In this document: positions 21,118 to 60,175 of the stretch, piece after piece | Position numbering within the stretch: the first letter of the stretch is position 1 | How the letters are laid out: each line of letters opens with the position of its first letter | Assembly (NCBI GenBank): GCA_015178975.1 | Contig: WHVD01000140.1 | Span: forward strand, 1 to 64,000 | DNA: 64,000 nt | Source of the DNA: Hysterangium stoloniferum | Taxonomy: Eukaryota; Basidiomycota; Agaricomycetes; Hysterangiales; Hysterangiaceae | Reading direction: 5' to 3' | Made by a program: the position numbers and the translations under genes | The notes under the pieces: generated by a model | Database searches by the model: none | The model's input: the letters and a program-made list of their open reading frames with translations, nothing else | What the model was told of the DNA's origin: nothing

Positions 21118-23028
21118 ATGTCAATCCGGAAATTACTGCGGAACCCACGAGTAACTTCGCAAATATATCTTGCATATGATGGCCATATTCACCCTTCGCT
21201 TGTTCTGCGACGTGTGCTTAGTACAGAATCTGAGATTGGTCAAGGCGGTATGGAAGAATCCAAGGGCTTCAAAGACGAACTCTCTGCGGACGCATTAAAA
21301 AGAAAACGGCATATAGAATGGAAAAGACGACAAAGAGTGAACCATTTGTTCGTATTTATTTAACATTACAAATACCAACGAACGCTTTCATGACGCAGGG
21401 AACAATCTTTTTGGACAACGTCATAATCAATGTTCGCAGTGGCACGTCTTTGCTTCTCCTCACCTTTTTTTCGCTCTATAACAATAAATTAATGCACAGG
21501 GAAGGGTGGTGATGGTTGTGTTGCATTTCATCGCGAAAAATTCAAGGCGCTAGGTCCCCCATCCGGTGGCAACGGCGGAACTGGCGGGTCGGTTTATGTC
21601 CAGCCGGTACCGCATCTTACCTCCCTGTCCGGTATTTCAAAACGCGTATTTGCTGGCCCGGGAGCTAACGGGCATGGAACATGGCTCCATGGACGCACTG
21701 GCGCAGACGTCATTATCCAGGTGCCGTACGGTACGATTGTCCGTGAGCTCACAGATTCACGACGGGCCAAGGACGCCTGGGAAGCCGAGGAAGAATCCTT
21801 CGATGATCTAAAATTAGGATTACAAGAACGACAGGAAAAACGACGACAACGCCGCTGGTTGCATTATCCGCAATACGCAGAAAACAATGTTGGGAGAGAC
21901 GACTTTCGGGAGGCCGAAGCGCGTCTGGCATCTGAAGAGAGACAAAGGCATTTGGAAGAAATTCAACGGAGAAGAAAACCGTTATTTGTTGAATTTGAAG
22001 GGATAGATATTAGCCCTGAGGCCGAGGCGATTAGAGCGCAAGAGAAAGCAAACCAACCACTCGGTCTGCCGAGGTCAAAAAGTAAAGGTGTCCTCGTCGC
22101 GGCAGGTGGCGCTGGCGGCTATGGAAATCCTTACTTTCTCTCTTCAACCAATCGATCACCCAAGTTTGCATCGAGAGGGCAAGAAGGAACGCGTGTCACC
22201 CTCGAACTCGAACTTAAGCTTATCGCGGACGTCGGCCTTGTTGGTTTCCCTAATGCAGGAAAGAGCACCCTACTTAACGCTCTAACTAAAAGACGAGCGG
22301 AAGTGGCTGGATACGCATTCACCACATTGAACCCTCAAATCGGTACAGTGCGGGTATTTGAGGGCGGCGCTTTTGACGGAGGTGGCGTCATCGAAGATTC
22401 TTCTGTGGTGCGGGAACGTGAACGGGAGTTGCTGAGCCAAGGGTTTGAAGAAGGGGCGAGACGGCCACGTAGACACGCGGAAGCACAGGATGAAATATTC
22501 CGCTTCACTATTGCAGATAATCCGGGCCTCATCGCCAGGGCGTCCGAAAATGTTGGTCTGGGTCACAGTTTTCTGCGCAGTATCGAGCGTGCCAGTGCCC
22601 TAGTATATGTTGTCGACCTCAACGGTGATAAGCCGTGGGAGGAGCTACAAACATTGAAGAATGAGCTTGAAAGTCACAAGGAAGGGCTCAGTTTGAAATG
22701 TAGGCTTGTCATCGCAAACAAAGCGGATTTAGTGGCCCACGTTGAAGAAGCATTAGAGGCTTCTAGCCAACTAAGTGTGGCAGAATCGATGGCAATACAG
22801 ATGGCTCAGGAAAAGTTGAAGTATTTGGAAACTTGGGTTCAAGACAAGCTCGGATATCTGCCAGTTGTTCCTATATCGGCCAAGTACAACCAAAACCTCC
22901 GGCGCGTTGTAAAGTTGTTGAGCACTTACGTAGACGATTCTCGCCGGGAGCAGGCAACGAAGCACAAAGTTGATCAGGTACAATTCTGCATTGATCTAGC
23001 TGAAACGATGGCTTATATCCGCTCATAG
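21118..23028 (+). CDS. MTG2: Obg-family GTPase, mitochondrial ribosome assembly type
   Basis: Model: exons 21,118-21,351, 21,399-21,438 and 21,500-23,028; phases close and give about 600 residues. The N-terminus is basic and plausibly a mitochondrial targeting sequence. Exons 2-3 hold the glycine-rich Obg fold (GGDGCVAFHREKF, GGNGGTGGSVYV). The G domain follows: G1 GFPNAGKST near 22,240, G2/switch I FTTLNPQIG, G3 DNPG near 22,519, G4 NKAD near 22,720, and a C-terminal G5 region with PISAKY near 22,872. An acidic and basic insert separates the Obg fold from the G domain, longer than in bacteria. Mitochondrial Obg proteins (yeast Mtg2) help mature the large ribosomal subunit; that role is inferred from family. 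The second intron has a weak GTGGCA donor. A possible last intron (GTACAA at 22,979 to CAG at 23,061) would shorten the C-terminus slightly. Confidence 0.9.
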
Positions 23029-36970: not shown

Positions 36971-38108
36971 TCATTCTCCTTTCAGCTTACTCTTGACCGC
37001 AAAGACTTCTTCGGTCGTCAATCCAACCACATCACGAGCGTACACCTCAACAGCTGCGAAAAGAGTCGTATCGTCTAGCTCGGTCGTGAGGCTATCTTGG
37101 TATGTCCTTTGAAATGCGCTGAGGAATGCTCTAAACGTTTCAGGCCTAGCGAACATAGCATTGAATCCAATAAACAAGACAGAGTGAAACATACCGAGAA
37201 GTAAGCATCTCAAGTGCGCCGGTGGGATCTTCGACGAAGGATGGATCCACCATGAACTATTAAAGTGTATATCGCAGCGTGAATACAAATCTAGCGAGTA
37301 CCTGAGCAGGAACATGCGTACAGATGAAATCACCCTATCCCACTGCTGCTCCAGGCCAATCTTGGATAACGCATAATCATTAATGATAGTTGAAGATGGT
37401 ACTTCTGCGAGCTGTGTAATAAGAGTTATTTACAGGAATTTAACAATTTAATACCTTCATCTAATATGAAGGAGACTCACCAGTAAAATTACTGCGACAA
37501 GAACCCCTGTTCGGTCTTTCCCGGCTGTATGGTTCGACGGAAATGGAAGTGAGGAAAATATATACGAAAGGTCGCAGCCTTCGAACATACTTACCATTGC
37601 AGTGAAGCAATATCGCCTCGTCCTTCTCAGTCCGAATAATCCGTCTCAATACTTTCGCAATGGTGTCTTTTCCACCTTTCAAGAGAGTTGTATACATACT
37701 CATGAACGACCCCATAGGATCGGCCTTGTACGCAGCAAATATAGCACGGGTACGGGACGGCGCGTACATGTGATCGCGATCGTTGTCTCGACCAAACAGC
37801 CCTTCAGCACTTTTACCATCCTCCTTTGTCTCATCTGCTCTTTTCTCACTGAGCATAGGAGCCCATTCAACATCCACTCCGTCGATCACCTTCAATGGAC
37901 TCCCGTAGCGCTCCATGTCCCCTTTGGATCGCAAATCAAATATTGTGCGGATTTTATATTTCTGTGCATCGGATGACGTGAGTTGCAAGATTTCCCCCGA
38001 GCGGATGAGTTGGGGTGAGGTTGATGAGGTCGGAAGAGGGACTCGTCGGATGTTGAGCACATGGGGAAGAGGCAGAAAAGGATCTGAGAGAGGGGTTGGA
38101 ATGGCCAT
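36971..38108 (-). CDS. Tyrosine/serine protein phosphatase, Y_phosphatase3 (DSP) family
   Basis: Exons 38,108-37,595, 37,524-37,481, 37,411-37,322, 37,256-37,195 and 37,145-36,971 close in phase and give 294 residues. The N-terminal third carries the family pattern NIRRVPLP, an LIRSGEI block and TIFDLRSKGD. The catalytic CX5R P-loop is assembled across intron 1 as HCNAGKDRTGVLVAVIL: Cys nucleophile, Arg phosphate binder, with the following Thr in place. It is followed by a helical C-terminal lid with PETFRAFLSAF and GLTTEEVF. Members dephosphorylate Tyr or Ser/Thr residues or other phosphorylated substrates; the substrate here cannot be told. Length is usual for the fungal family. The gene looks intact, with five exons and 50-73 base introns. 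Confidence 0.88.
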
Positions 38109-41100
38109 AGCTTAATTATCCAGTGACTCAATTTTCATGGTCTTTAAATATGGTCCAGCTCCGCATACTGCGGGCTCACTGGGATTTCCATGGAGTTGGC
38201 GGCTTGACATCCGCAGTGTCTGAGTCATAGCGGCGGGTCTGCAGGATGCCGGAAGTTGGGAGTCGTCATCTATCAAGGATATTAAAGGAAATCACTCTCA
38301 TTGGCTAAAACGAAGAGCGTTCCGAGTCCCTGCCGTCGCCGTGATGGAGCTTTTGTCACAGGCCACAGTGACAGCAATATTTGGTGTCAGTCCTCTTTGG
38401 GAAGATATATTTCGAGACAATCTTTATACTAAGTATTTTTGACTTCATTATACCGTTTCATTCCAAATGCGTAACCTGAGACCCATACTCTCTGCCAGGA
38501 CAGTTCCTGTTTATTTTTCTTGGTTTCTGAATGAACAATGTTACTGTAACTGCATCCAAGTCTCGCTATCATTCTGTCTTTATTCTATGTTGAAATATAT
38601 GTATAGTGGGCGAAATATATTTTTAGAAGACGATCGAGGATGTACAAAGAGTGGGTGCGAAGATCCTTTGTGCCACTGTTTCCTTGTTCCTTATTCCAGC
38701 ATAGTTAAATAGCATCGAAGTCCTCTCATAACTTTACCAATGGTTGCAATACAGCGATCATGGCTTTTCCAAGGTTAATCACGCTAAAGAGCATGGGTGC
38801 TGTTTTTATAATGATTATAATTGTTTTACAAATGCCATCAGTGAATTCTGTCAGCTGATCAAAATGATCTCACAGAAACCGTTAGTACTGCAGATGGCAA
38901 AATTTCCCAACTCTCTATATCGGTGACACTCAATTGGCACATGGTAAACTGCTGGAAATAGATGCTTTCATCTCGTGACTGGGAGATGAGGATCCTAACT
39001 TAAATGGAAACCCTCCTCAGCCAGAACTAGCAGCGACCGGCACCTCGAAGCTGGGTTAGATGTGGCCACCAGGTGACCTACAGTATTTCATAGGGTGGGT
39101 AATTCTTCTTTAACTCATTTCATGTGCCGTATTTTAAGCCAATTCTTGATGATAGAGATGTTCTGGTTTAAATCTAAGAGATGTAGGGATCAACTTGTAA
39201 GCAGTTTTTACATGTGCCATGTCTATACTGTTTATAAGTTAAATTACCAAGTGTTTAGCTATTGTTTTAACCAAAAATTATCATGGATTGTTGCCCTCGT
39301 TTTGACGACACATGGCTTTTGCGAGCACAATCAGACATGCTCAAGAGATTGGATTGATATATTCTTCTTGACTGTTTTCAAGTTCTCGGATGAAGCATGT
39401 GTCTTTTATCTCTGCCGTACATCGTCCTTATTAATTAATACTTGCAGATTTCCATTAGGGAGCGGCATTGTACATAAAGAATTTTCTCTATCTCTTTGTG
39501 AGGACACATCTGTATTGGACCATGCCATGTAAGCTCATTCGATACAGACACGGTACTCAAAGTTGGTGTGGTACCGCTCGTTTTCTATCGTTATTAGATC
39601 GTGTCGTATATTCACAAGACCTTTGTCTGATATAATATTGATGAGGTCGATTTCAGCCAGCTACACAAGTGACAGGATCAATTTTCTCTCACCTATCTTG
39701 GATTACAGCTCGGCTCTCATGAGATGTGCGAAAAATGTGCACTCCTCTGAAGTTGTTAAATAATCCTTCCTCTTCATTAAATGTCGTGCAATGTTTCAAC
39801 TCGACGCTTATGGGTACGACTACATATCTCTTTAGGAAAGAGAAAGGAAGGGAAAAGGGAAAAAAATTTAACGCCGGATGTTTAACAGTATTCCAACTGG
39901 TGCCGGATAAAATCGCACATGCATACATGTTAAATTTGTAAGCGAAGTGAGCGGTTGGAGTCGCATAGTAACTGGGATTGCTAATACCTGGGTTCGTTGC
40001 CTCATTTTCGGTATATAATACTCGTAGTTGTTGACTTTTCTGGGATTTGGGTTAGCGAGAGATTACGAACATTAGGGCTCGGCTCGCTGCGGTTGGGAAT
40101 CACCGCATATTTTGGGTTACATAAGGTCTATTTGTATTTGTTTAGTCCTTTACAACGAGTACCATCACCTCACTCAGACAAACGGAAAGTTATACGGTCT
40201 AGGAGCAGCACCACCAAAACTTCAACAGTAGTTACGTCTGACCCCCGTGCGTTTGTAACCCTTCAATACTACTTGTACCACCCCGCGTTTGTCCCTTTGA
40301 GATCTGCTCGTACTCTTGTTGGAATATAGCGCGACACATTTGTGTTATTTGAATCCACTACAGTCCACAACTGTCGCATATATGCGATGTCAACAGTGTA
40401 TTATATCCTATTGGTCTGAGTTAAAAAAGTTTTTCATCAGTCCTCGTTTGCTTTATACGAGACTGAGTATATTTGTTATAGCTTCGTGTTACAACAACTC
40501 TCATGTAAAATTCTACAGTACACATATGACATGACTGAAGTTACAAAACGGCAAGATGTACTAGGAAGCGAGCTTCACATCTTTCAAACCAACGAGAAAA
40601 AAGTAATTATCGACCGCGCCAAGCCCAATTGATCACCTGACCCGGCAAGCTGCTGATATTCCCTATCAAAATTACCCGTTTCCCTACATGTGAAGGATCA
40701 CGTTGCGACGTTATTTCTTGGAGGAAGCACTCGATCTATTATTATGCTACCCTTCGCTTTGTGACATTCTCTTTTTAATTCATATTGCTTGTCCTCGCTG
40801 ATTCCTTTCATATGATCACTGATCCTCCCTTTATTCTCCTCTTCGGCTTTCTTCCACCCTCACTACGTCATAATCATATCACGGGGTTGTGTGCGTAATG
40901 ATATCTGTTGGTACCTTGTTTTTATACTACCGCCTCCTACCGAACCAGCCAAGAGCAACAGTGACAACAACTACTATGTTTTTCCCATACTAAATCTTCG
41001 CCCAGAAGAAGGCTTTACTGAGTTATCCGGAACAACATGTTATATTAACTAGTTGTTTCTTATATAGGTCGTCCCACTCATTCTTTCACCTGTGCCATAC

Positions 41101-44250: not shown

Positions 44251-44704
44251 ACTGTTTCAAGGACAACGATTGGTAGCCTAACTTTTAAAGCCGCCAAGGG
44301 TGATTGATGTTACAGCTGCCCAATCAGCAGTTTCGAAGTTTTCTATCAAATGCTCAGGGTCTGGAATGTCTGAAAGGGTGATGGGTTGTCCTAGACAACA
44401 GAGATAAGTGCTTATGGGGTAAGATCCAGTGCCCAGTGGGTTTCCCGATCCTAACATGGCTCTGCTATGTAATATTAGCACTGGATTCCATAGGAATTTG
44501 CATCGGGCATGTACATTTCAAACACAATGTTATCTTTAAAACAGACATGAAATTCCTCCAAGGTGGGTGGTACTCCAAAGAGACAGTTCTCCTTTGAAGA
44601 TCCTCAACAGGAACCATCAATTCCTTTTTCAATGGGAAATATTTGAGGTGGCAGGAAGCTTGATTATCTGTAGATGCTTGTAGATCTCTTGTCCCAATCC
44701 ATCC
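44251..44704. other. Unassigned, CpG-poor
   Basis: Between the hAT relic and an LTR fragment. Minus-strand frames 44,481-44,278 and 44,725-44,465 carry no recognised motif. Probably transposon-derived, given its CpG poverty. Confidence 0.35.
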
Positions 44705-45220
44705 CTGAGTCTGTTTGACATGCATTCATTCATTTGTTTATTGTGTTCCCCATACTTGTTCCTATTTCATCTTAATCCTTATTCCTAGTATGGTCTTCCC
44801 TGCATTGTTCTTGTTCACCCTTTTTGTCTTTTTGTCTTGCTGGATTAGTAGTACAATAATCACTTAGTCTATATAGTCTAGGATCCATTTGTACTTACAA
44901 TCCAATCAGAGTATTGACTTACTACCCACCTAGTATCCACCCAATTGCTTGCTTGATATCTCCTTATTACACTGGCTCATAGCATATTATCAGAGTCCCC
45001 AGGTTTCCTGACTCTCACATAGTGTATTCTTGGACACCACAGGATACCTGACTCTCTCACATAACATATTCCCAGACTCCCTGAGTTATGTACCTGCATC
45101 TCTCTGTCTGAAATTGGACCCAACAATCATGTGAGAGCACAGCACATATGTGAGCTGAAGCCAAGTCCTACCCATCCCCAGTTCCTTTCAGAGTTCCTGA
45201 TTGCTTATTTTTGTACCTTT
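44705..45220 (+). mobile_element. LTR fragment, gypsy-like family B/C
   Basis: Shares the GCTGAAGCCAAGTCCTACC block (near 45,155), GTAGTACAATAAT (near 44,850) and AGTCTATATAGTCTAGG with LTRs at 4,260-4,790 and 5,031-5,562. CpG-poor. Edges are approximate and no coding body is attached. Confidence 0.45.
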
Positions 45221-45507: not shown

Positions 45508-45721
45508 GGGTAGGCAACTTTTTTGGATATGCTGTAGTCTATAGGATTTGTCTAACTTTTCAATATGATTAATATAAAAGAAAGAACCAGAATTATGTTG
45601 CTTGTCCATCTATTGGGTGGCAACTTTTTTGGATAGGCTGTAGTCTATAGGATTTGTCTAACTTTTCAATATGATTAATATAAAAGAAAGAACCAGAATT
45701 ATGTTGCTTGTCCATCTATTA
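45508..45721. repeat. 107-base tandem duplication
   Basis: The sequence from GGGTAGGCAACTTTTTTGG at 45,508 to CTTGTCCATCTATT is repeated directly from 45,615 (GGGTGGCAACTTTTTTGG) with very few differences. There are two copies with a period of 107 bases. Divergence is low, so the duplication is recent. No coding potential. Confidence 0.9.
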
Positions 45722-46274
45722 GGTGGAAATCTCCTGTCAAAAAGATAGTGTTCATGTCATAGTTTGACCTGATTCACAAATTCAGTATATACTTTGAGAG
45801 CTCTCCATTTTCTTAGAGATTGTTTGATAGACTAACTTGAATGGAATGTATATTTCAAACTATATAGATATGTAATACTTAATTGAATTGAATACATTGT
45901 TTTTTTAAAGTATGTAGATAGCCTTCATGGTTAATGTTTAGATACATACAGGGAGACAGTGATAAGCAGGAACGAGGCTGACGGCGACGTTTGGGTGCAA
46001 ATAGCAATCAACTACATATGGTTTACAGAATTAAAGAATGTTTAATTACTTAGAAAAAGGTGCCCCTATGATCAAATAATTTGATATATCAGAGAACAGC
46101 AATCACATGACTGGGCCAGACATTGGCAGCAGCAACCAAGGAAAGGAGGACTTCCAGCATTTCCATAGAACCCATTGTTGTTGCTGTAGCAAGTATTATT
46201 CCATTATTCACCTGTATGGACAACACAAATAGCATCATGAGAAGAAAGATCTTGACCACTTCCAAAGAAATTAT

Positions 46275-49200
46275 TTAATGCTCTCCCTGCAAGTGCTGCC
46301 CATATGGACCTGCCCGGATATTGGGATCAACACCATGGGGAAGGAGGGACTCAACCTTATCTAAATGATTTTTTACTGCAGCTGCAATGAGTGCCATCAC
46401 TTCATCACCAGCCTGGACATTAGGATCAGCACCATGGGCAAGGAGGATCTCAAGGACTTCCAAATGGCCCTCTACTGCAGCTGCAGTGAGTGCTGTCCCA
46501 TATCCAAAAGCCTGGACATTGGGATCTGCACCATGGGCAAGCAGGACCTGAAGCACCCCCAGATGACCCCTTGTTGCTGCTGCAACTAGTGCTGTCCCAT
46601 ATTGACCTGCCTGGACATTTAGATCAGCACCATGGGCAAGGAGGACCTCAAGCACCTCCATATGACTCCCTGATGCAGCTGCAGCAAGTGCTGTACCATC
46701 ATCACCTGCCTGAATATTGGGATCAGCACCATGGGCAAGGAGGACCTCAATCAATTCCCTGTGACCCTCTAATGCAGCTGCATTGAGTGCTGTTCCATAA
46801 AGACCTGCCTGGACATTGGGATCTGCATGATGGGTAAGGAGGACCTCCACCACTTCTGTATGACCCTGTGATGCTGCTGCAGTGAGTGCTGTCTCATGTG
46901 GACTTTCCTGGACATTGGGATCAGCACCATGGGCAAGAAGGACCTTGATGACTTCCATATGACCCCGTAATGCAGCTGCAGTGAGTGCTGTGCCCTGAAA
47001 ACCTGCTTGGATATTGGGATCTACACCATGGGCAAGGAGCACCTTGATCACTTCTACATGACCCCCTGATGCAGCTGCTGTGAGTGCTGTCCCATGCTCA
47101 CTCGCCTGGACATTAGGGTCAGCACCATGGGCAAGAAGAACTTCAAGCACCTCCATGTGACCCTCTGATGCTGCTGCAGTGAGTGCTGTCCCATTATCAT
47201 CACCTGCCTCAACATTGGGATCAGCACCACCATTCAATAAAGCTTCTATCACACCATGCAATCCATAGTATGCAGCCACATGCACTGGTGGTCCCAGTTT
47301 CCTCCAGTCATGTTTGTCCCAGAGTCTGAATTGTTGGCTTCCTTTTTCAAAAAGCTTCATTATTAGACTGTGGTACTTATCCAAAGAGTCATCTCTACCA
47401 GCTTTTGCATGAAAAACCCAATGTCTACTGCTATATGTTTTCAGAGGATACTGATCCTTAAGATCTTGTTCATGTGTAACAGATGGCATCAAAGTGTCTT
47501 GAAACTGAAGCAAATAGACTAGACACATCTTTGTGATGTTTGTGTGTGCCAATTGTGCTTCAAGGTGAAGGCTTGGAGGTGGTCCTCCACTAGAAGTATC
47601 CATCATAAGATACTCCTTTACTGAGAAGTGTGCCAATTTGACAGTGCCTACAAAAGGTATATTAATATAGTCTCTTCACTGCAGATTATACAAGACCCAC
47701 CAGCTGACTGTACAACTAGACCTGCACAGACATTCAACAGATTAGTTGGATTTTTGTATACAGCTTCATGGTTGAAGGGAGGTTTGGAGTCACCAACTAC
47801 ATAATCCATGTTTATTCCTGTGATCTGGGCCAACTCTTTTACTTTTAAGGGTTCAAAAGAAAAGGCCAACCACTGCAAAAATTTCAAGACATCTTTCTGC
47901 TTCCTCTCCGGAATCTTGAGAATGATCCTTTCATAAGTTTCAGAGAGTGTGGCTGGAAGTCTGCCCAGCTGCTCGCGTAGGTCAAAAACACTGTCACAGT
48001 CAGAGAGCCCTTTGAGTTGCAGTGCAACCCATCTGAACCTAACAGTGAACAAGAAGATCAGTATTAGAGATGACATAATATCAAAGATTTACTGACATTC
48101 CATCTGCACCATTATTCAATGTAGTGAATATATCATTTTGGAGACTTAGAGAGAATGAAGAGAAGGCTTGTGATTGTAAAGAACCACGGATATATGTTGT
48201 GATGTCATCATTATTCTCTGCATTATGTAGAAACAAGCGTTCTGTGTTTAGTTCGTCCATTTCTCCTCGGCTGGATATATCTGGTCGAACAGTTACTAGG
48301 ATGTGTATCTTTGAATCATTTTGAGTCAATAAGCCTTTGATCCATGTGATTACTTGGGAATGCTCTGAGCATTCATCAAGTGCATCCAATATAATGTAAA
48401 CATCTTCAAACATAGTGAGTAAATCACTGAATACTCTCTGAAGTGATCCCAGAGATGGTTCTTCAGCTCCATTTTTATTGAATTTAAAGATTTGGAGCAG
48501 AACCTTAGGAGCATCAAAGCAAATTAGAAGTAACTGTTTGATGAGAGATCTGATTAGTTTGTGATAGGATTGGAAATTCTCTTGGGAATCCCTAGAATCA
48601 AAGAAGAAGTAGACTACAGCTCGTGATGGATTATTAACACAGAGTTCTTGAACATTGATAACAATTGATGAACTACAGCGAAGGGCAATTTTCAACTAAT
48701 AAGAGCCTGCTCAAAAGCAGATAAACTTACCATAAAATTGTTTTCCCAGATCCAGCTGAAGATGGAATAGTAAGGCGAGAGGAATCCATAAAAGTGACAG
48801 ACCAACATACAAGTACCATATACCCAGAGACACTGGTTGACACCTTCCTTCCATTGTATGAATTGCCTGCTATTGAGAAACCAGGAGCCTGTATTTTCCA
48901 TGCGTTCCTCCTGTGCAGTATTCAAGGTTTTTGATGGATTTGGGGCAGATAACCATTCATCAATATCTTTGCGGAGTTCTCTGGTCTCTGAAGTTTTTAT
49001 GTTAGTCTGTGAAAAGCCATTAGGTTTCAAGTACAATACCCGGGTTGTTGCACCACTGATAGCCTTTGCACAATGCCAGGCTGTTTTTTTCCCAATTTTT
49101 GTGAATAGCTAACGGTGCCTGGTCAGTCATTTGTTGGAGAAGCCGAGTGATGGAATCATATCCCTCATCAGCATTTGAGTCAAAATGGGCGAGTCCCAGG

Positions 49201-50195
49201 TGATCCTTATGGATTGCAATCACTTGAGTATCAACAGATCCTGGAACAACAGCGGAGCTAACAGGAACATACTGTAGAATGATTGGGTTAAAGGTTCAAA
49301 AACGAATGCTCAGAATACAAAACCACTTACCCCTTTTGATGAACCATCCGGTCCCAGAGTATGATATGTCTCATAACAAAAGACAGTGCGAAATCTGCTA
49401 CTGATAGCGTTGTAATCATGTATCTGCCGCTGCAGCATCTCAGAATGCAACCCCAAGTGCTTTATAATCGGATCATTGGTTAGGGAGGTAAGAGAAAAGT
49501 GTTCTAAGAGAGATTTGGTCCAACTTGTAAGATTAATTCCCTGATGAGGAGTGCCTAAATAAATGATGCCATAGGTTGACACTTCAACCGCTTTGTGTGC
49601 AGGCAGATGTCCGATATGAGTTGTATTTGCATGTATGAGGGCCTTAAAAATATGGGATAAGAGACGAGAAAAATATTCACGAAAGGATTGGGCACACTTC
49701 TTTGAGGATTATACCACCGAAACTATGCGCAATAAAGATCAATGGTCTCTGCTACAAATAAATAGACCATTAAGGTTATCTCATATGCTCACAACGAATG
49801 GCATACATACATTCGTTTTTGAATCCTCTCTGAAAATGGACAACTTCGCGAAGAAGTCAATGGCTAAGTCATGGAGAGCTTGATTGGTTCTATTCACACC
49901 ACGAGTGCGTGCATCATAACCGTAGGTTAGAATCCTGGAGGTGGAAAGGGTTTTAGGCAAGAGATCACGAAGCCAAAGAACATTATTAGGAGCTGTAAAG
50001 GATCCCTCACGATGCCCGTCGAGGCCGTGGATGGCAACGATACTAGAAGGGGTTGTGACAAGGTACGTCGTCAGGTATAGATCAAATGACTTACTCGACG
50101 GTAGGGGAATCCCCCCCAGGCGCAAGAACTTCTACCCCGAAGTTATATCTGTCGGGGGGTGTGTTATTTGTAGAAGGTGAGAGGACGGTAGACAT
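46275..50195 (-). CDS. STAND/NLR-type receptor: alpha/beta hydrolase - NACHT - ankyrin repeats
   Basis: Nine exons on the minus strand: 50,195-50,095; 50,042-49,811; 49,748-49,698; 49,642-49,331; 49,271-48,817; 48,755-48,731; 48,672-48,097; 48,038-47,701; 47,647-46,275. All junction phases close except inside exon 5, where the frame slips by one base at an A7 run (T7 at 49,084-49,090 on +). Allowing that, it is about 1,150 residues. The N-terminus is a SesB-like hydrolase: DIVAIHGLDGH, RILTYGYDARTRG, nucleophile elbow IAHSFGGIILKE, YLGTPHQG. A linker (EWLSAPNPS) leads to NACHT: Walker A GSGKT (split by an intron), FFFDSRD, Walker B YIILDALDECSEH, VTVRP. A winged-helix-type segment with AHFSVKEYLM precedes about ten 33-residue ankyrin repeats. 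Such proteins act as intracellular sensors in fungal self/non-self and programmed-cell-death pathways; the ligand is unknown. The slip may be a sequencing error or a real lesion. Confidence 0.88.
46300..47270 (-). repeat. Homogenised ankyrin-repeat array in the NLR gene
   Basis: About nine to ten ~99-102 base units encode GTALTAAAS.GH.EV..VLLAHGADPNVQA-type repeats. Units are nearly identical except at two spots: the residues after AAA (SEG, SGG, LRG, SQG, LEG, SGS, TRG, VEG, VKN) and the five after DPNVQ (ASEHG, AGFQG, ESPHE, AGLYG, AGDDG, AGQYG, AFGYG). High internal conservation with confined variation is a known mark of fungal NLR repeat domains that evolve by unit shuffling. The array is almost free of CpG. 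Confidence 0.85.
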
Positions 50196-52125
50196 GTTTA
50201 ACAGTAGTCAAAGAAACAGGGGTAGTTGCTGTGGTAAAAACGTCACGTACAATGTCACACATATTACAAACATTCAAATAAATAGGATACAAGTACTAAA
50301 TCCCCAGAAAAGACAAAAGAAAGACAAAAGAAAGACAAAGACATGTAGTAAGACTGACCATCCCCACGTTCATTTAAAACCAGGATTAAGTATCCCATAA
50401 TTCCCACGGTATGTGTTACATTGAATGTCTCGCTTGAGCTGAACCAGCAATCAAATATGGACCCCTGAGCAGCGAATGTCGTTATCACTCTTACACAGAC
50501 GCATATTCGCAAAAGCGGCTGATTAGGAGTACGGCAATAGCCAAATGGTCTGTTCCATCCACTATCCCATAGGACTATATCATGGCCACGGAGTCGCAGT
50601 ATTCACGGCAGTCGCCGTCCCTGCCCCACTCATTTCAGCATTCGGAGACCTCCCACGTTAACAACATTTGCGCTTGGATGCTTTAGTCGTAAAGTCTCTT
50701 GCTGAGCTCCGTATCTCCATGTGAAGATTAACTATATCTGCACCCTTACCTTATGTTTGTGCATTCTTCATTGCTTCGAGCGCAGTTATCGCTGATGCAC
50801 AATCGTAGAGTATGTTCATATGAGGGAGGCTGTGACTAATCCCTGCGTAGAATCCTCTTCGCACTGATACGAACGTTATCTGTTGATCCCCAACATGGCA
50901 CCACCCCGGTTCACAACCCTTCTGCCACGCCTAGTGCAGGGTATACATATCAAGGCGCCGAAGCTAGGCCGTGTCATTGGGCGTATACCACTGAGATTTC
51001 CTTTGAGCCATATCGAGTTTTGTTCATAGTCCGAATGCCGATCGCACGACTCCAGTTAATGGTTTAAAGCCAACCGAATTTATACACAATTATATATGAT
51101 GTTCTTCAGGTTGTCGAACCTTTACTGGGCCTATACGATCTTTGATTCCATCGTGACGGAGATCATATAACGTATTCATCCTACCCCCATGAAGCAGTCA
51201 AGAAGCCTTCCCGGCGATTCCAAGATTACAAATTTTCAGTTTGTGAGGTATTCGAACCCCCCAGACTTGTGGGGGTCATCTCTCGCGACGATCCTAACAC
51301 ATCGTGTCATAACAGCACCATCTACTTCCTGAATCCCCTCAAATCTATCTCCCTCAAATGTCAGTTGAGCTACAATCACAACCATAAGCGCCGTCTGTAC
51401 CTTCGGTTCCATCTTACTGCCTAGGTTATGTTCATGTCTAGGATGATGTGGCGAGTTTAACCCGCCCCTATCGACAGCGTCGCCATGACGCACTGTTTTG
51501 GTCGATTCGCAGATGACGAAGTATACTTGTTTATCCAGGGTACCGATTAGTTAGTAAGCTATGGCTTCGCCCGGCCACCCAACGTCACCCCTTATCGCCC
51601 TCCACAATCTTACCGTTGAATCCGCTGCTCCTTTTCCTCAGACTTTCAACAATTTCAACAACGTTTTGCCATATAAAGAATTTTCGTAACATACTTTTGG
51701 AATATTGCCTTGGAGTGGGGCCCTCTGTGGTTTCAGACAAGGAAATCGCCACTTTGATATCCAGTCTGAAGCACATGCGGATGTAATGGATGATTTGATT
51801 GTATACTGTCAAACCAAGGGATCACTTGGGGTCACACAAGATAAGCACGATAAGGGCATGTCGGCACTTTTTCTGTAATAGCGTTTATACGACACGGTTG
51901 TAGTGCTTGGAAACGCGATTCTCAATCTCCCTATTGATCTCGCTAGGGTCTCAAGCACGACGTGGGGCTGTCCGTGCATGCGAAAATGTAGCAAAGTCGT
52001 GACTTTCGAAATGCAAGCTCGCCCTCTCTTAATCGCGTGAGCCTGACTGGAATAGACTATTTATGAATGTGTCACATCAGGAAGACAATTAACAGTGAGA
52101 GGGAGTACGGGAGGAACTGGTTACA
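50196..52125. other. Unassigned 1.9-kb stretch upstream of the NLR gene
   Basis: It should contain the NLR promoter just above 50,195, but no clear TATA was seen. Minus-strand frames at 51,994-51,809, 51,812-51,585 and 51,493-51,236 look mildly protein-like (KMEPKVQTALMVVIVAQ; SKSMLRKFFIWQNVVEIVES) but match nothing I know, and no splice chain was established. Confidence 0.35.
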
Positions 52126-52129
52126 AAGC

Positions 52130-52905
52130 AAATGGCGAGCTTCTACACAACTTGTCAGGTATTCTCATATAGTTGGTCGTCCACCCGTCAACGCTCCGTT
52201 GGACATCCGCCAGGCTTAATACCAATTCCCATTCGTGGATCCTCGGAATTATGCGGTGACTCAATTGACCAACGCCACATTAGACGCCCGGGAAGATCGA
52301 TTAATTGATTTGTCAGAGATCATAGTCCACTCGCAACTCATCCTTGCTCTCAACCCCAACAACTGAAATTTTAAAACCCTCCAGAATCTACGCCATGGTC
52401 ATCAAAGCTATGGCTCACAACATTGGATTTTGCCAATGTTGTTATTCTCCTTCTTGGAGTCATTCATGCAGTCAAAATAGTTGCCCACCCAAGGCACATT
52501 GTAGGTTCATCTTTCTCGTCTCCACACATAACCTTAATGTCCCCTGTATAGTATTCTGCAACTTTTCCATTACCCTCAAGCTGCTGAACATTGCCCATCT
52601 CTGTCGCTTTGCGACATACACTCTCACTGTTTCCCTCGCCTCCTACATTAAGATGTGTGGATATAACCTTCACATCTTACTCGTTATCTCTTGGTTCCCA
52701 CTCCATCAGTGGAGCATCCTGAAGTTTCTCAGCTTTGTGGTGGAGAAGCTCTTTGGTCCATCGCTGCTTCCTGCACCTGTAGCGGATATTTCTTTTTCCT
52801 CAAAATTCATGGCACTTTTCAAGGTTGTGACTGGAGTGAAGATTGAGCCGTATTACGCGAACGTTATTGTCAACTTGTTGCCTGTCAGTGTCTCCTTGCG
52901 CCCCT
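52130..52905 (+). repeat. Duplicated module X, copy 1
   Basis: Direct repeat of 54,971-55,745 with high similarity, starting AAATGGCGAGCTTCTACACA / AAACGGCGAGGTTCTACACA and running about 775 bases. It contains the two-exon membrane-protein coding segment described for copy 2 but carries small length changes that disturb the first exon frame, so this copy may be a pseudogene. A long frame, 52,344-53,000, covers most of it. Confidence 0.8.
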
Positions 52906-53039
52906 GTCAGGGGTTCTCTATGGAAGATATTGCCTGCCGGCCCAAGTCCGATGCCCGCAGATGTTATGGATCAGGTCATCAGTTTGTTCTCCGGTATTGA
53001 ACACTCTCTTGAGGCAGAGGCTTTCCCCATGGTTACTTC

Positions 53040-53580
53040 AAGGTATATCCCCATTCCCTCATTTATGTCCTGGTCATTGACAAGCTGCACATTCAGGATC
53101 ACAGCAACGTTCGCATATGTTGTAGTTACACTACTTATGGTAGTGTATCTCCGCAGACCCATTTGGAACATTTGCCATCAAGCTTTGTGCTTTGTGGCAC
53201 GAGCCGCGTGAATGGTGTTGTTTTGGTTGCTCAACATTGCAGCGACGATTGGGTTTAAGTTGCTGAAATCTGTCTTGGGATGTATCTGCACGGTCTCAGC
53301 GTACCGGTCATATTCTCTTGCAGACGACCTCATGTCACCCCCCTTGTCCCCATCCTCATGACCCGCAATCCTATCGCCATTCGCCGCGCGTACATTCAAG
53401 CCACAGCCAACGGCATCAACACATTCAGTGGAGCACAACAGGGCGCCCCTGAGAACATCGATCAGGATGATGTTTTCAATTGTGAAGAGATGTCCCGGTA
53501 CATGAGCACCTCTTCCAACGCTGAACCCATTATACCCACTGCCGCTGCCACTGAAGCAGACCCCACCCCACCTGCCACCA
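53040..53580 (+). repeat. Duplicated module Y, copy 1
   Basis: Starts with GGTTACTTCAAGGTATATCC and recurs from 53,874 to about 54,430. It encodes hydrophobic segments and then the Thr/Pro-rich repeat unit once (INTFSGAQQGAPENID, EEMSRYMSTSSNAEP). The module ends abruptly where the inverted copy of module X begins, after CCACCTGCCACCACA. Confidence 0.75.
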
Positions 53581-53583
53581 CAT

Positions 53584-53865
53584 CTTCATGTAGGAGGCAA
53601 GGAAACAGCGAGAACGTGTATCGGAAAGCGACGGAGATGGGCAATGAGTTCAGCAGCTTGAAGGTAATGGGGGCGTCGCGGAATACTATACGGGGGACAT
53701 TAATGTTATGTGTGGAGATGAGGAAGATGAACCTACAATGTGCCTTGGGCAACTATTTTGACTGCATAAATGACTCCAAGAAGGAGAATAACAACATTGG
53801 CAAAAGGTCCAATGTTGTGAGCCATAGCTTTGATGACCATGGCGTTGGTTTTGGAGGGTTGTAAA
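53584..53865 (-). repeat. Inverted partial copy of module X
   Basis: Reverse complement of about 55,230-55,512 (and 52,365-52,650). It is placed between two module Y copies, so the locus reads X - Y - inverted X - Y - X. The copy keeps the first exon's reading frame (ANVVILLLGVIYAVKIVAQ on the minus strand), unlike copy 1. Confidence 0.8.
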
Positions 53866-54055
53866 CTTTCAGTTGGTTACTTCAAGGTATATCCCCATTC
53901 CCTCATTTATGTCCCGGTCTTTGACAAGCTGCACATTCAGGATCACAGTAACGTTCCCATATGTCGTAGTTACACCACTTATGGTAGTGTATCTCCGCAG
54001 ACCCATTTGGAACATTTGCCATCAAGCTTTGTGCTTTGTGGCATGAGCCACGGGA

Positions 54056-55021
54056 ATGGTGTTGTTTTGGTTGCTCAACATCGCAGCGACGATTGGGTTT
54101 AAGTTGCTGGAATCTGTCTTGGGATGTATCTACACGGTCTCAGCGTACCGGTCATATTCTCTTGCAGATGACCTCATGTCACCCCCCGTTGTCCCCATCC
54201 TCATGATCCGCAATCCTATCGCCATTCGCCACGCGTGCATTCAAGCCACAGCCAACAGCATCAACACATTCAACACATTCAGCAGAGCACAACAGGGCGT
54301 GCCTGAGAACATCAATCAGGGTGATGTTTTCAATTATGAAGAGATGTCCCAGCACATGAGCGCCTCTTCCAACGCTGAACCCATTATATCCACTGCTGCC
54401 GCCACTGAAGCAGACCCCACCCCATCCGCCACCACCGACACTGTAGAAGACCCCACCCCATCCGCCACTACCACCACTACAGCAGACCCCACCCCATCCG
54501 CTACCACAGCTACTGCAGCCGACCCCACAGCAGACAGCATCAACACAGTCGACGGAGCGCAGCAGGTTGCCCCTGAGAACATCAATCAGGACAAGGACGA
54601 CGTTTTCAATTATGAAGAGATGCCCCGGCACATGAGCGCCTCTTCCAATACCGAACCTATTCTATCCACTGCCACTGAAGCAGACCTCACCCCACCCGCC
54701 ACCACTGACACTGCAGCAGACCCCACCCAATCTGCTACCATAGCTGCTGCAGCAGACCACACAGCCGACAGTATCAACACACTCAGTGGAGCACAGCAGG
54801 GCCCCCCTGAGAACATCAATCAGGACAAGGACAACGTTTTCAATTATGAAGAGATGTCCCGGCACATGAGCGCCTCTTCCAACGCTAAATCTATTCTATC
54901 CACTGTCGCTGCCACCGAAGCAGACCCCACCCCACCCACCACCACCAACACCGCAGCAGACCCCACCCTTTACAAAGCAAACGGCGAGGTTCTACACAAC
55001 TTGTCAGGTATTCTCATATAA
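54056..55021 (+). CDS. Hypothetical protein with hydrophobic N-terminus and Thr/Pro-rich tandem repeats
   Basis: An open frame of 321 codons. The first ~60 residues are hydrophobic (MVLFWLLNIAATIGF, then SVLGCIYTVSAY), suggesting membrane segments. The rest is three tandem units of about 75-95 residues. Each has SINT, a GAQQ..PENINQ block, NYEEM..HMSASSN, EPI, and an acidic Thr/Pro spacer with DPTP.ATT repeated one to four times. The start codon is uncertain and the frame may be the 3' exon of a longer gene whose upstream exons lie in module Y (53,874 onward). I do not recognise the family. The repeats look like a stalk or secreted tail. Its end runs into module X copy 2. Confidence 0.45.
   Translation: MVLFWLLNIAATIGFKLLESVLGCIYTVSAYRSYSLADDLMSPPVVPILMIRNPIAIRHACIQATANSINTFNTFSRAQQGVPENINQGDVFNYEEMSQHMSASSNAEPIISTAAATEADPTPSATTDTVEDPTPSATTTTTADPTPSATTATAADPTADSINTVDGAQQVAPENINQDKDDVFNYEEMPRHMSASSNTEPILSTATEADLTPPATTDTAADPTQSATIAAAADHTADSINTLSGAQQGPPENINQDKDNVFNYEEMSRHMSASSNAKSILSTVAATEADPTPPTTTNTAADPTLYKANGEVLHNLSGILI
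54240..54965 (+). repeat. Tandem coding minisatellite (three units, plus one in module Y copy 1)
   Basis: Units begin near 54,250, 54,535 and 54,770 with a CAGCATCAACACA-type start. Each contains GAGAACATCAATCAGG and CACATGAGCGCCTCTTCCAA. An extra unit lies near 53,420. Unit length differs mainly by the number of ~24-30 base CCCACCCCATCCGCCACC subrepeats. Confidence 0.85.
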
Positions 55022-55745
55022 TTTCTCGTCCACCCGTCAACGTTCCGTCGGACATCCACCAGGCTTAATACCAATTCCCATTCGTGGATCCGACAGCAAA
55101 TTATGCGGTGACTCAATTGACCAACGCCACATTAGACGCCCGGGAAGATCGATTTATTGATTTGTCGGAGATCATAGTCCACTCGCAACTCATCCTTGCT
55201 CTCAACCCCAACAACTGAAATTTTAAAACCCTCCAGAATCTACGCCATGGTCATCAAAGCTATGGCTGACAACATTGGACCTTTTGCCAATGTTGTTATT
55301 CTCCTTCTTGGAGTCATTCATGCAGTCAAAATAGTTGCCCAAGGCACATTGTAGGTTCATCTTCCTCGTCTCCACACACAACCTTAATGTCCCCCGTATA
55401 GTATTCTGCGACTTTTCCATTACCCTCAAGCTGCTGAACTCATTGCCCATCTCCGTCGCTTTCCGATACACGCTCTCGCTGTTTCCCTCGCCTCTTACAT
55501 TAAGATGTGCGGATATGTTCTTCACAAGTTACTCATTATTTCTTGGTGCCTACTCCATCAGTGGAGCCTCCTGGAGTTTCTCAGCTTTGTGGCGAAGAAG
55601 CTCTTCAGTCCATCGCTCCCTCCTGCGCCCGTAGCGGATGTTTCCTCTTCCTCAAAATTCATGGCACTTTTCAAGGTTGTGATAGGAGGGAAGATTGAGC
55701 CGTATTATGCGAATGTTATTGTCCACTTGTTTCCCATCAATGTCT
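54971..55745 (+). repeat. Duplicated module X, copy 2
   Basis: Direct copy of 52,130-52,905; see there. This copy retains an open two-exon coding segment. Confidence 0.8.
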
Positions 55746-56077
55746 CCTCACAGCTGAAAGGTGAGCCAGTCATCTGTTTATTTAGTAACCCATCCTGTAA
55801 TCTAACCATGTCCATAGCCTCGCCCCTGTCAGCTGGGGGATGCTGGCTCAGAGTCCGATGCCTGCAGATGTTCTGGATCAGGTCATCCGTTTGCTCTCCG
55901 GTGTTGAACACTCTCTTGAGGCAGAGGCTTACTAGAGGTCGACCAGTGGAGGATAGTCCCACGCCACGGAGGGTTAAACCATTTCAGTGCATACTGAAGG
56001 GTTTGTGGGATACGGGATTATGTCTTGTGGTGCGGCAGATGGTGACCTGCTTCATATCGTCATCCTCGTCCAAATAA
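55247..56077 (+). CDS. Hypothetical membrane protein (module X coding segment, copy 2)
   Basis: Exon 55,247-55,350 joins in phase to 55,402-56,077. A further optional intron, 55,761-55,817, is a multiple of three, so the frame stays open either way. The first exon encodes a helix (FANVVILLLGVIHAVKIVAQ). The second has HYPQAAELIAHLRRFPIHA, a second hydrophobic stretch (YVLHKLLIISWCLLHQW), a Pro/Ser linker (SPSLPPAPVADVSSSSK) and KIEPYYANVIV. The equivalent segment is conserved in the inverted copy, supporting this strand and frame. Function unknown, not recognised. The true gene probably starts further upstream (an open segment at about 55,100-55,217 has NYAVTQLTNATLDARED) but that link was not resolved. 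Confidence 0.45.
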
Positions 56078-58913: not shown

Positions 58914-59624
58914 TAAAAACCATGTAAAATCGAGATGGGAGAGTCATCGGTCATTGGTCATTGGATGTGAATGTATGCTGGTAATGCCACTCGTCCGAAA
59001 AAGGATTCAAAGTCCAGGTAAATTTAACTACCAACGTGAGTGAGAGTGCCGTGCGAACTAGTTGTCACTATCCCATGTTGCAACGTCGTCACGTACCATG
59101 TGTACACGCTATGATGGACGAAGGTAAGATGAGGTTGGATAGGTTATGTTATTATTAAGGTGGCAGGACACGCGTGGATGTCATTATAATCCCCACCCCG
59201 GCGTGGGAGGCGACTGGGCATCTGCCTAGTCAGGCATAGCCGGTATGCTAAAGACCGGCAGGTAGTGTAGGACTCACCGGTCAAAGTCAAAATATCCACT
59301 AAAACTCCCTGATGGATGCTTAATGCAAAAGCCGGCCGAGTTCATACAATAAACTTTGCATTGGTGACAACTTTGGATTGCATTACCCTGGCAAGCACCG
59401 TATCTTCTACCCATTTGGTGATGACAATAGCCAATGATCAGCTAAAAAGTTCGTATGGACCCACAGATTTCATTATTTCCCCGCCGAACAATGATATGGC
59501 AAGGGCGCATGAAAAAACTATGTTACCTGCCATTAACATGACTAGACTATCATTGACCTGGGATTCTCCTCATTGAAAGTTTTGATCGGATAGGTTGACA
59601 ACGCCAATTTGAAGGCAGCAGCCG
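58914..59624. other. Intergenic stretch between lipase promoter and minisatellite
   Basis: No gene supported. The frame 59,316-59,576 (+) has no motif. Confidence 0.35.
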
Positions 59625-60175
59625 ATTACATCGTTCTGGACTGCATTTTTATTATACATGGCAATGCTACTTCTCGAATATCAGAAAAGCCGTATTGCTT
59701 TCAACTCTGACGCTCAAAAACGCCAGAAATATTATACCGTGGAATGATGACATTCTGGACTGCAATTTTATTATACCTGGCAATGCTACTTCTCGAATAT
59801 CAGAAAAGCCGTATTGCTTTCAACTCTGACGCTCAAAAACGCCAGAAATATTATACCGTGGAATGATGACATTGCTCTGGACTGCAATTTTATTATACCT
59901 GGCAATGCTACTTCTCGAATATCAGAAAAGCCGTATTGCTTTCAACTCTGACGCTCAAAAACGCCAGAAATATTATACCGTGGAATGATGACATTGCTCT
60001 GGACTGCAATTTTATTATACCTGGCAATGCTACTTCTCGAATATCAGAAAAGCCTAATAGAGAGTATTTGCAACGAGTATTTGCAACTAATGAAATATTA
60101 GTTGCAAATACTCTCTTAATTCTGACGCTCAAGAACGCCAGAAATATTACACTATGGGGTGACAATCAACTAAAT
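59625..60175. repeat. 122-base minisatellite, four to five copies
   Basis: CTGGACTGCA begins each unit at about 59,636, 59,756, 59,877 and 59,999, a period of ~122. Units contain TTATTATACCTGGCAATGCT, CGAATATCAGAAAAGCC and GAAATATTATACCGTGGAAT. The middle copies are almost identical. The last copy is interrupted by a MITE at 60,059-60,116 and ends in a more diverged half unit. Confidence 0.92.
60059..60116. mobile_element. MITE, family 1 copy 3 (short form) inside the minisatellite
   Basis: 58 bases starting AGAGAGTATTTGCAAC and ending GTTGCAAATACTCTCT. It lacks the inner arm (TTAGCTAAACTGAAT) of the other two copies and has a small duplication of GAGTATTTGCAAC near its left end. It is flanked by TAAT on both sides, a possible target duplication. 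Confidence 0.8.

What the first reader, a model, noticed from the sequence alone, without database searches (positions are those of the whole stretch)
46275..50195. Hydrolase-NACHT-ankyrin receptor with internally homogenised repeats
The gene combines a SesB-like alpha/beta hydrolase (IAHSFGG elbow), a NACHT switch (GSGKT, LDALDECSEH) and about ten nearly identical ankyrin units. Differences between units are confined to two short surface loops. In fungal NLRs such high internal conservation is linked to rapid repeat shuffling and recognition of variable partners, so this may be an allorecognition or defence locus specific to this lineage. Its neighbours on one side are transposon relics.
Basis: partly seen in the sequence, partly recalled or inferred. 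Interest (0 to 1): 0.75.

Follow-up and report, generated by a model that had tools for sequence, protein, structure and literature searches.

The report
Fungal immune-type receptor with ankyrin repeats
This is an intact gene for a fungal NLR-type receptor (hydrolase, molecular switch and ankyrin repeats), one of a family in this genome whose repeats vary greatly in number and show signs of diversifying selection, a known kind of presumed self/non-self sensor.

Summary
The order is SesB-like hydrolase, NACHT, ten ankyrin (ANK) units. It belongs to a family in a 111 Mb fungal genome; I compared 14 long members. Exons 1-9 are under purifying selection (dN/dS 0.23-0.47 in nine members). "Internally homogenised" is wrong for this copy: its ten units average 61.5% amino-acid identity, the eight core units 70.6%, the best four-unit block 72%. 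Eleven of the other 13 members do reach 85% in such blocks, with 16-53 usable units. In seven stop-free paralogs nine ANK positions have piN/piS above 1, strongest in the first helix and the beta-turn. Blocks are copied within genes; no exchange of blocks between genes was detected. Against the sister C11 the exons are 90.5% identical, the best array window only 79.8%. Best reading: a fungal NLR of the NACHT-ANK kind described by Dyrka et al., a new member of a known kind, with an old, unhomogenised array. Ligand, expression and strain variation are untested.

The parts
46275..50195 (-). whole gene, ten exons, 1139 aa
   Evidence: splice sites shared in an alignment of 14 paralogs; no in-frame stop
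49040..50195 (-). exons 1-5 (50195-50095, 50042-49811, 49751-49698, 49642-49331, 49271-49040): SesB-like alpha/beta hydrolase, nucleophile elbow IAHSFGG at residues 118-124
   Evidence: elbow motif invariant in nine aligned members; sub-threshold DUF676, PGAP1, Abhydrolase_6 and Hydrolase_4 matches
48811..48987 (-). exon 6, ends inside the Walker A motif
   Evidence: donor GTATGT in 14 of 14 members
48731..48755 (-). exon 7, a 25-nt micro-exon that carries the core of Walker A (GSGKT)
   Evidence: 25 nt in 14 of 14 members; GSGKT in nine of nine aligned members
48097..48672 (-). exon 8: rest of NACHT, Walker B ILDALDE
   Evidence: NPHP3_N profile positions 40-164 in the genome search
47701..48038 (-). 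exon 9: region C-terminal to NACHT
46275..47647 (-). exon 10: linker and whole ankyrin array, stop codon included
46302..47294 (-). ten ankyrin units of 33 residues; the first and last are divergent edge units
46119..46202 (-). degenerate ankyrin unit beyond the stop; W and C11 align through this 3' end, with gaps
51538..52899 (.). unclassified repeat upstream of the gene, at least 12 near-full-length copies elsewhere at 84-88%
   Evidence: 40 of 51 candidates scored, list cut

Best explanation
The gene encodes a fungal NLR (STAND) receptor. The ankyrin solenoid is the sensor: residues of the first helix and beta-turn on its concave face contact a partner or foreign protein. Binding frees the NACHT domain to exchange nucleotide and oligomerise. 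Oligomerisation activates the N-terminal SesB-like serine hydrolase, which probably acts on membrane lipids and leads to a local non-self or cell-death response. Sensor diversity arises by birth and death of whole genes and by gain and loss of repeat units within each gene, with diversifying selection on the contact positions. Shown here: gene structure, domains, family, purifying selection on exons 1-9, repeat-number variation, within-gene copying of blocks in 11 of 14 members and excess replacement at specific positions in seven paralogs. Inferred from the family: ligand binding, oligomerisation, hydrolase output and biological role.
For: Ten-exon open frame with its nine introns at positions shared by the paralogs. 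Intron lengths differ between W and C11 in 7 of 9 introns, while each of W's exons 1-9 keeps frame against the A-clade member C399b. dN/dS 0.23-0.47 over 36 pairs of nine members, and 0.24-0.27 for the eight pairs with the window gene. Elbow, Walker A core and ILDALDE kept in nine of nine aligned members, with variation next to them (C/S after Walker B, D/T in HKDH). Nine unit positions have a bootstrap lower bound of piN/piS of 1.00 or more (position 13 only just); the two strongest, 10 and 32, are also the two strongest in each of two clades. A unit's nearest neighbour is in the same gene for 0.69 of 188 and 0.84 of 160 units, against 0.20 and 0.18 after shuffling labels. PMC4986451, sections 13 and 17 read in full, describes the same kind of ANK evolution in Podospora NLRs.
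Against: No expression, ligand or strain data. The window copy's own array fails an 85% internal-conservation test and shows no recent block duplication. Five of 14 members are disrupted in exons 1-9 or at their start by my models, and C544c stops before its array, so the family also decays. Clustering of units by gene does not hold in every gene: the nearest neighbour lies in another gene for 26 of 38 units of C399c, 7 of 7 of C51, 13 of 30 of C399a and 5 of 10 of W. The hydrolase assignment rests on motifs and on Pfam matches below their cut-offs. The first 806 residues match no solved structure.
Confidence: 0.7

Rival explanations
1. The window copy is a retired member: an intact but no longer diversifying receptor whose array has contracted and is drifting, on the way to loss like its sister C11.
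For: Few units (10). Highest synonymous spread among units of the eight genes tested (piS 0.371 against 0.130-0.266). No recent block duplication. Sister C11 has lost AHS of the elbow and carries a frameshift and stops.
Against: All ten exons open, nine GT-AG introns, motifs kept. W-C11 dN/dS 0.26, though that pair includes a recently broken gene.
Confidence: 0.3
2. The receptor has a fixed internal partner (guard or housekeeping role) and is not itself diversifying; only the two amplified clades act as variable sensors.
For: No young internal duplication at this locus (best self-window 0.803).
Against: Array content differs from C11 far more than the exons do: 2 of 10 units have a counterpart at 0.85 or more among the 8 usable C11 units (two C11 hits were dropped), while the exons are 90.5% identical.
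Confidence: 0.2
3. Diversity is produced by splicing of 3-nt micro-exons, as reported for the Tuber melanosporum NACHT-ANK family (Iotti 2012, known to me only through PMC4986451 and PMC9815663).
For: AG-NNN-GT occurs at the hypervariable codon in 25 of 366 units, 4 of 10 in the window gene.
Against: 341 of 366 units lack it there. GTAAG occurs in 0 and GTATG in 3 of 366 units, while 5 of the window gene's 9 introns begin with one of them. The window array is one open exon.
Confidence: 0.03

Closest known systems
Fungal NLRs with highly conserved ANK repeats, e.g. [quoted passage not shown]
   Same: NACHT-ANK core, variable unit number (among paralogs here, among strains there), replacement excess on inner helix and beta-turn
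   Different: Different N-terminal domain (SesB-like). The window array is below the 85% internal-conservation criterion. A paralog here has 53 usable units; the paper names 21 ANK repeats in its highest-count highly conserved ANK protein.
SesB-like/NACHT/ANK architecture, e.g. the Metarhizium anisopliae entry in table 2 of PMC4986451 (passage read)
   Same: Same domain order
   Different: There in an ascomycete; PMC9815663 (passage read) calls SesB-like domains almost missing from basidiomycete NLRs. This genome looks basidiomycete, judged by recalled features.
Tuber melanosporum NACHT-ANK (nank) family, as described in PMC4986451 and PMC9815663
   Same: Expanded NACHT-ANK family in one species
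   Different: Tuber family reported to use many codon-sized micro-exons; here the window array is one exon and splice signals in the units are rare
Podospora HET-E/HET-D (NWD) receptors (PMC4986451, PMC12222747, passages read)
   Same: Repeats homogenised within genes, with selected surface codons
   Different: WD40 repeats and HET effector there; exchange between paralogs is reported there, and none of blocks of 396 nt was detected here

Membership tests
fungal NLR (STAND receptor) | NACHT or NB-ARC switch with Walker A and B | tested here: met
   Pfam NPHP3_N and NACHT over cut-off; GTSGSGKT and ILDALDE
fungal NLR (STAND receptor) | C-terminal superstructure-forming repeats | tested here: met
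   five generic ANK models over cut-off
fungal NLR (STAND receptor) | N-terminal effector domain of a known class (SesB-like) | tested here: inconclusive
   HGLDGH, elbow and LGTPHQG motifs the same in nine of nine members and HK[DT]H kept (role of each recalled), but all Pfam hydrolase matches lie below cut-off; no SesB model was tested
fungal NLR (STAND receptor) | ligand-induced oligomerisation and effector activation | not testable with these tools
   needs biochemistry
NLR repeats with high internal conservation (over 85% across 100 aa or more, PMC4986451) | over 85% identity over at least 100 aa within the gene | tested here: not met
   window gene best four-unit block 72%, by my own proxy for the paper's criterion; 11 of 14 members reach 85% in the same test; C11 and C51 also fail
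NLR repeats with high internal conservation (over 85% across 100 aa or more, PMC4986451) | replacement excess on binding-face positions | tested here: inconclusive
   met in seven paralogs; the window gene alone has too few units, though its most variable positions are largely the same
heterokaryon incompatibility (het) gene | polymorphic among strains and triggers cell death on fusion | not testable with these tools
   no second strain held
Tuber-type micro-exon NACHT-ANK family | arrays spliced from codon-sized micro-exons | tested here: not met
   by sequence only: 25 of 366 units have AG-NNN-GT at the variable codon, 0 of 366 have GTAAG; no transcripts seen

The most novel reading that the evidence does not exclude
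A basidiomycete has built a receptor repertoire from an NLR architecture (SesB-like/NACHT/ANK) reported as nearly absent from that phylum. About 28 loci appear to share the P-loop intron, arrays reach 53 ANK units, and each locus amplifies and contracts its array on its own, with no detectable exchange of blocks between paralogs. Array length and contact residues would then be the segregating non-self specificities of the population.
Probability: 0.2. Interest if true: 0.65.

Novelty: new member of a known kind. Interest (0 to 1): 0.4.

Why it matters
It adds a large, internally comparable family in which one assembly shows arrays at different stages: recently amplified in two clades, old in the window gene and its sister, dead in several copies. 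If strains confirm polymorphic arrays, it would test whether repeat gain and loss inside each gene can supply recognition diversity in a fungus whose NLR class is little studied.

Tried and rejected
The first gene model had stop codons because one intron was missing, and searches placed the exon 6 donor six bases too early. The missing intron was added, the donor corrected. For some searches the protein or coding part is therefore two residues short at Walker A; the stretches used lie before that point. I did not repeat them.

The suspicion that the array end of the window gene is a recent frameshift was dropped: W and C11 align there, with the same GGGCAGCACTTG stretch, so it is at least as old as their split. 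Exchange of repeat blocks between paralogs was sought in ungapped windows of 396 nt. Of 91 pairs, three had an array window more alike than the best exon window, by 0.013 at most, and those three join distant clades. Exchange of single units is not excluded: several genes have many units whose nearest neighbour is in another gene (C399c 26 of 38, C51 7 of 7, C399a 13 of 30), which shared descent could also explain.

Unit statistics use 366 of 391 domain hits; 25 were dropped for stops, gaps, low score or incomplete ends. In the six members that break or stop before the array (C11, C51, C399c, C157, C377b, C544c) the units counted lie beyond the first stop of my model. The bootstrap treats units as independent, which they are not. 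The selection test pools seven members (234 units, none beyond a stop); the window gene and those six were left out of the pool. Three more distant members (C522, C531, C57) have unhomogenised arrays, mean identity 0.52-0.57 over 7, 16 and 13 full units.

The taxonomic placing (agaricomycete) rests on recalled rDNA signatures in L029 and on 21 matches to PF20152, which I recall as a basidiomycete family. No database of fungi was available to test it.

Full report
Gene. On the minus strand from 50195 to 46275 there is a ten-exon gene. Introns were placed by aligning the window gene (W) with 13 long paralogs from the same genome and taking splice sites shared across them. The final model gives 1139 residues without a stop; its nine introns are GT-AG and 52-59 nt long. 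Exon 7 is only 25 nt and carries the core of Walker A. Pfam gives NPHP3_N, NACHT and ankyrin models above cut-off. The N-terminal 311 residues match four hydrolase families (DUF676, PGAP1, Abhydrolase_6, Hydrolase_4), all below cut-off, and no NCBIfam model; the SesB-like label therefore rests on conserved motifs and on recalled knowledge of the family. The first 806 residues match no chain in the PDB at E up to 10. The ankyrin exon matches ankyrins and designed ankyrin proteins.

Family. A DNA search found 92 matches in the 111 Mb genome; only 40 of 77 candidates were scored, so this is a lower bound. I compared the window gene with 13 long members on C11, C399 (three), C537, C12, C51, C544 (three), C377 (two) and C157. 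Eight of these 14 (W, C399a, C399b, C537, C12, C544a, C544b, C377a) run without a stop from exon 1 into the array, and none of their usable units lies beyond the stop; seven of the eight have the aligned ATG (C377a has ATA), and in C544a the donor of intron 1 was not resolved. By my models C11, C51, C399c, C157 and C377b are disrupted, and C544c stops after 843 residues, before its array. NPHP3_N is found at 63 places in the genome. In 28 of them the match begins at profile position 36-40, as it does in the window gene (40), which I read as the same intron after the P-loop without checking each. Pairwise dN/dS of exons 1-9 among nine members is 0.23-0.47 (36 pairs), so these exons are under purifying selection.

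Array of the window gene. Ten units of 33 residues were usable out of 11 domain hits. Mean pairwise identity is 61.5% (amino acids) and 72.1% (nucleotides); the eight core units give 70.6% and 78.6%. Most variation in the core lies at positions 32, 33, 13, 10, 9 and 5, then 16, 17 and 31. No two units are identical in DNA, and 5 of 10 have their nearest neighbour in the same gene. The best internal match over 396 nt is 0.803.

Arrays of the family. Usable unit counts are C537 53, C544b 39, C399b 38, C399c 38, C377a 36, C377b 31, C399a 30, C12 22, C157 19, C544c 19, C544a 16, W 10, C11 8, C51 7. The best four-unit block against another block in the same gene is 85% identical or more in 11 of 14; C51 has 75%, W 72% and C11 61%. 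The strongest internal copy is in C537: 0.997 identity over 396 nt at a shift of six units. Mean identity against lag peaks at lag 6 in C537 and C399b and at lag 5 in C12, as expected if blocks of several units are duplicated. The nearest neighbour of a unit lies in the same gene for 268 of 366 units. The figure is far above shuffled labels within each of two clades, but not in every gene: for C399c it is 12 of 38, for C51 0 of 7, for C399a 17 of 30. In 88 of 91 gene pairs the best array window is not more alike than the best exon window; in the other three the excess is 0.013 or less. So homogenisation appears to be mostly internal to each gene; exchange of single units is not excluded.

Selection. 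In seven paralogs (C537, C399b, C399a, C12, C544a, C544b, C377a; 234 units) the array has piN 0.156 and piS 0.173. Positions with a bootstrap lower bound of 1.00 or more are 5, 6, 9, 10, 13 (only just), 21, 24, 32 and 33; the strongest are 10 (2.81) and 32 (2.14). In the usual ankyrin numbering, recalled, these two are 14 and 3, at the end of the first helix and in the beta-turn, on the face that binds targets. PMC4986451 reports selected and polymorphic ANK positions in Podospora mostly on the same two elements (section 17 read in full).

Sister copy. W and C11 differ by dN 0.067 and dS 0.253. Their exons are 90.5% identical, but the best 396-nt window of their arrays is only 79.8%. Units 0 and 7 of W are the only two of ten with a counterpart at 0.85 or more among the 8 usable of 10 C11 hits. 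Neither gene shows an internal copy as young as the split (0.803 and 0.808). I infer that the two kept different units of a longer ancestral array. The 3' ends of the two arrays align, so that end is old. C11 has lost AHS of the IAHSFGG elbow and carries a frameshift and stops.

Surroundings. Downstream, 40026-40227 and 44668-45181 are dispersed repeats (capped). No RNA family reached its gathering score in the window.

Known work. The Podospora and general fungal picture is from PMC4986451 (passages, and sections 13 and 17 in full). PMC12222747, PMC9815663, PMC12258605 and PMC3321046 were read in passages only. Iotti 2012 on Tuber was not held; what I say of it comes from PMC4986451 and PMC9815663. 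I saw no title or abstract start on this family in those listings, but the species is unknown to me, so this is weak evidence.

Verdict. The window gene is a sound, intact member of a known kind of fungal receptor. The finding's central claim, high internal homogeneity, is wrong for this copy and right for most of its paralogs.

Noticed in passing
21493-23028 (+): Open frame of 511 aa with GTP1_OBG and MMR_HSR1 matches, an Obg-type GTPase.
   Followed up: partly
36971-38111 (-): Tyrosine phosphatase (Y_phosphatase3) gene split over two open frames, probably two exons.
   Followed up: partly
51538-55922: Composite repeat region with many copies elsewhere and inverted copies at 52360, 53579 and 55212; no Pfam domain in three ORFs.
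   Followed up: partly
40026-40227: Short dispersed repeat, 87-92% identical copies on many contigs (capped).
   Followed up: no
45508-45726: Tandem duplication of a 106-bp unit, 97% matches, just downstream of the gene.
   Followed up: no
59624-60054: Tandem array of a 122-bp unit, 3.6 copies, 96% matches.
   Followed up: no
48731-48755: 25-nt micro-exon carrying the Walker A core; its length is not a multiple of three, so skipping it would shift the frame. Possible splice control point.
   Followed up: partly
L023, L024, L025: More distant SesB-like/NACHT/ANK members on C522, C531 and C57 with unhomogenised arrays.
   Followed up: partly
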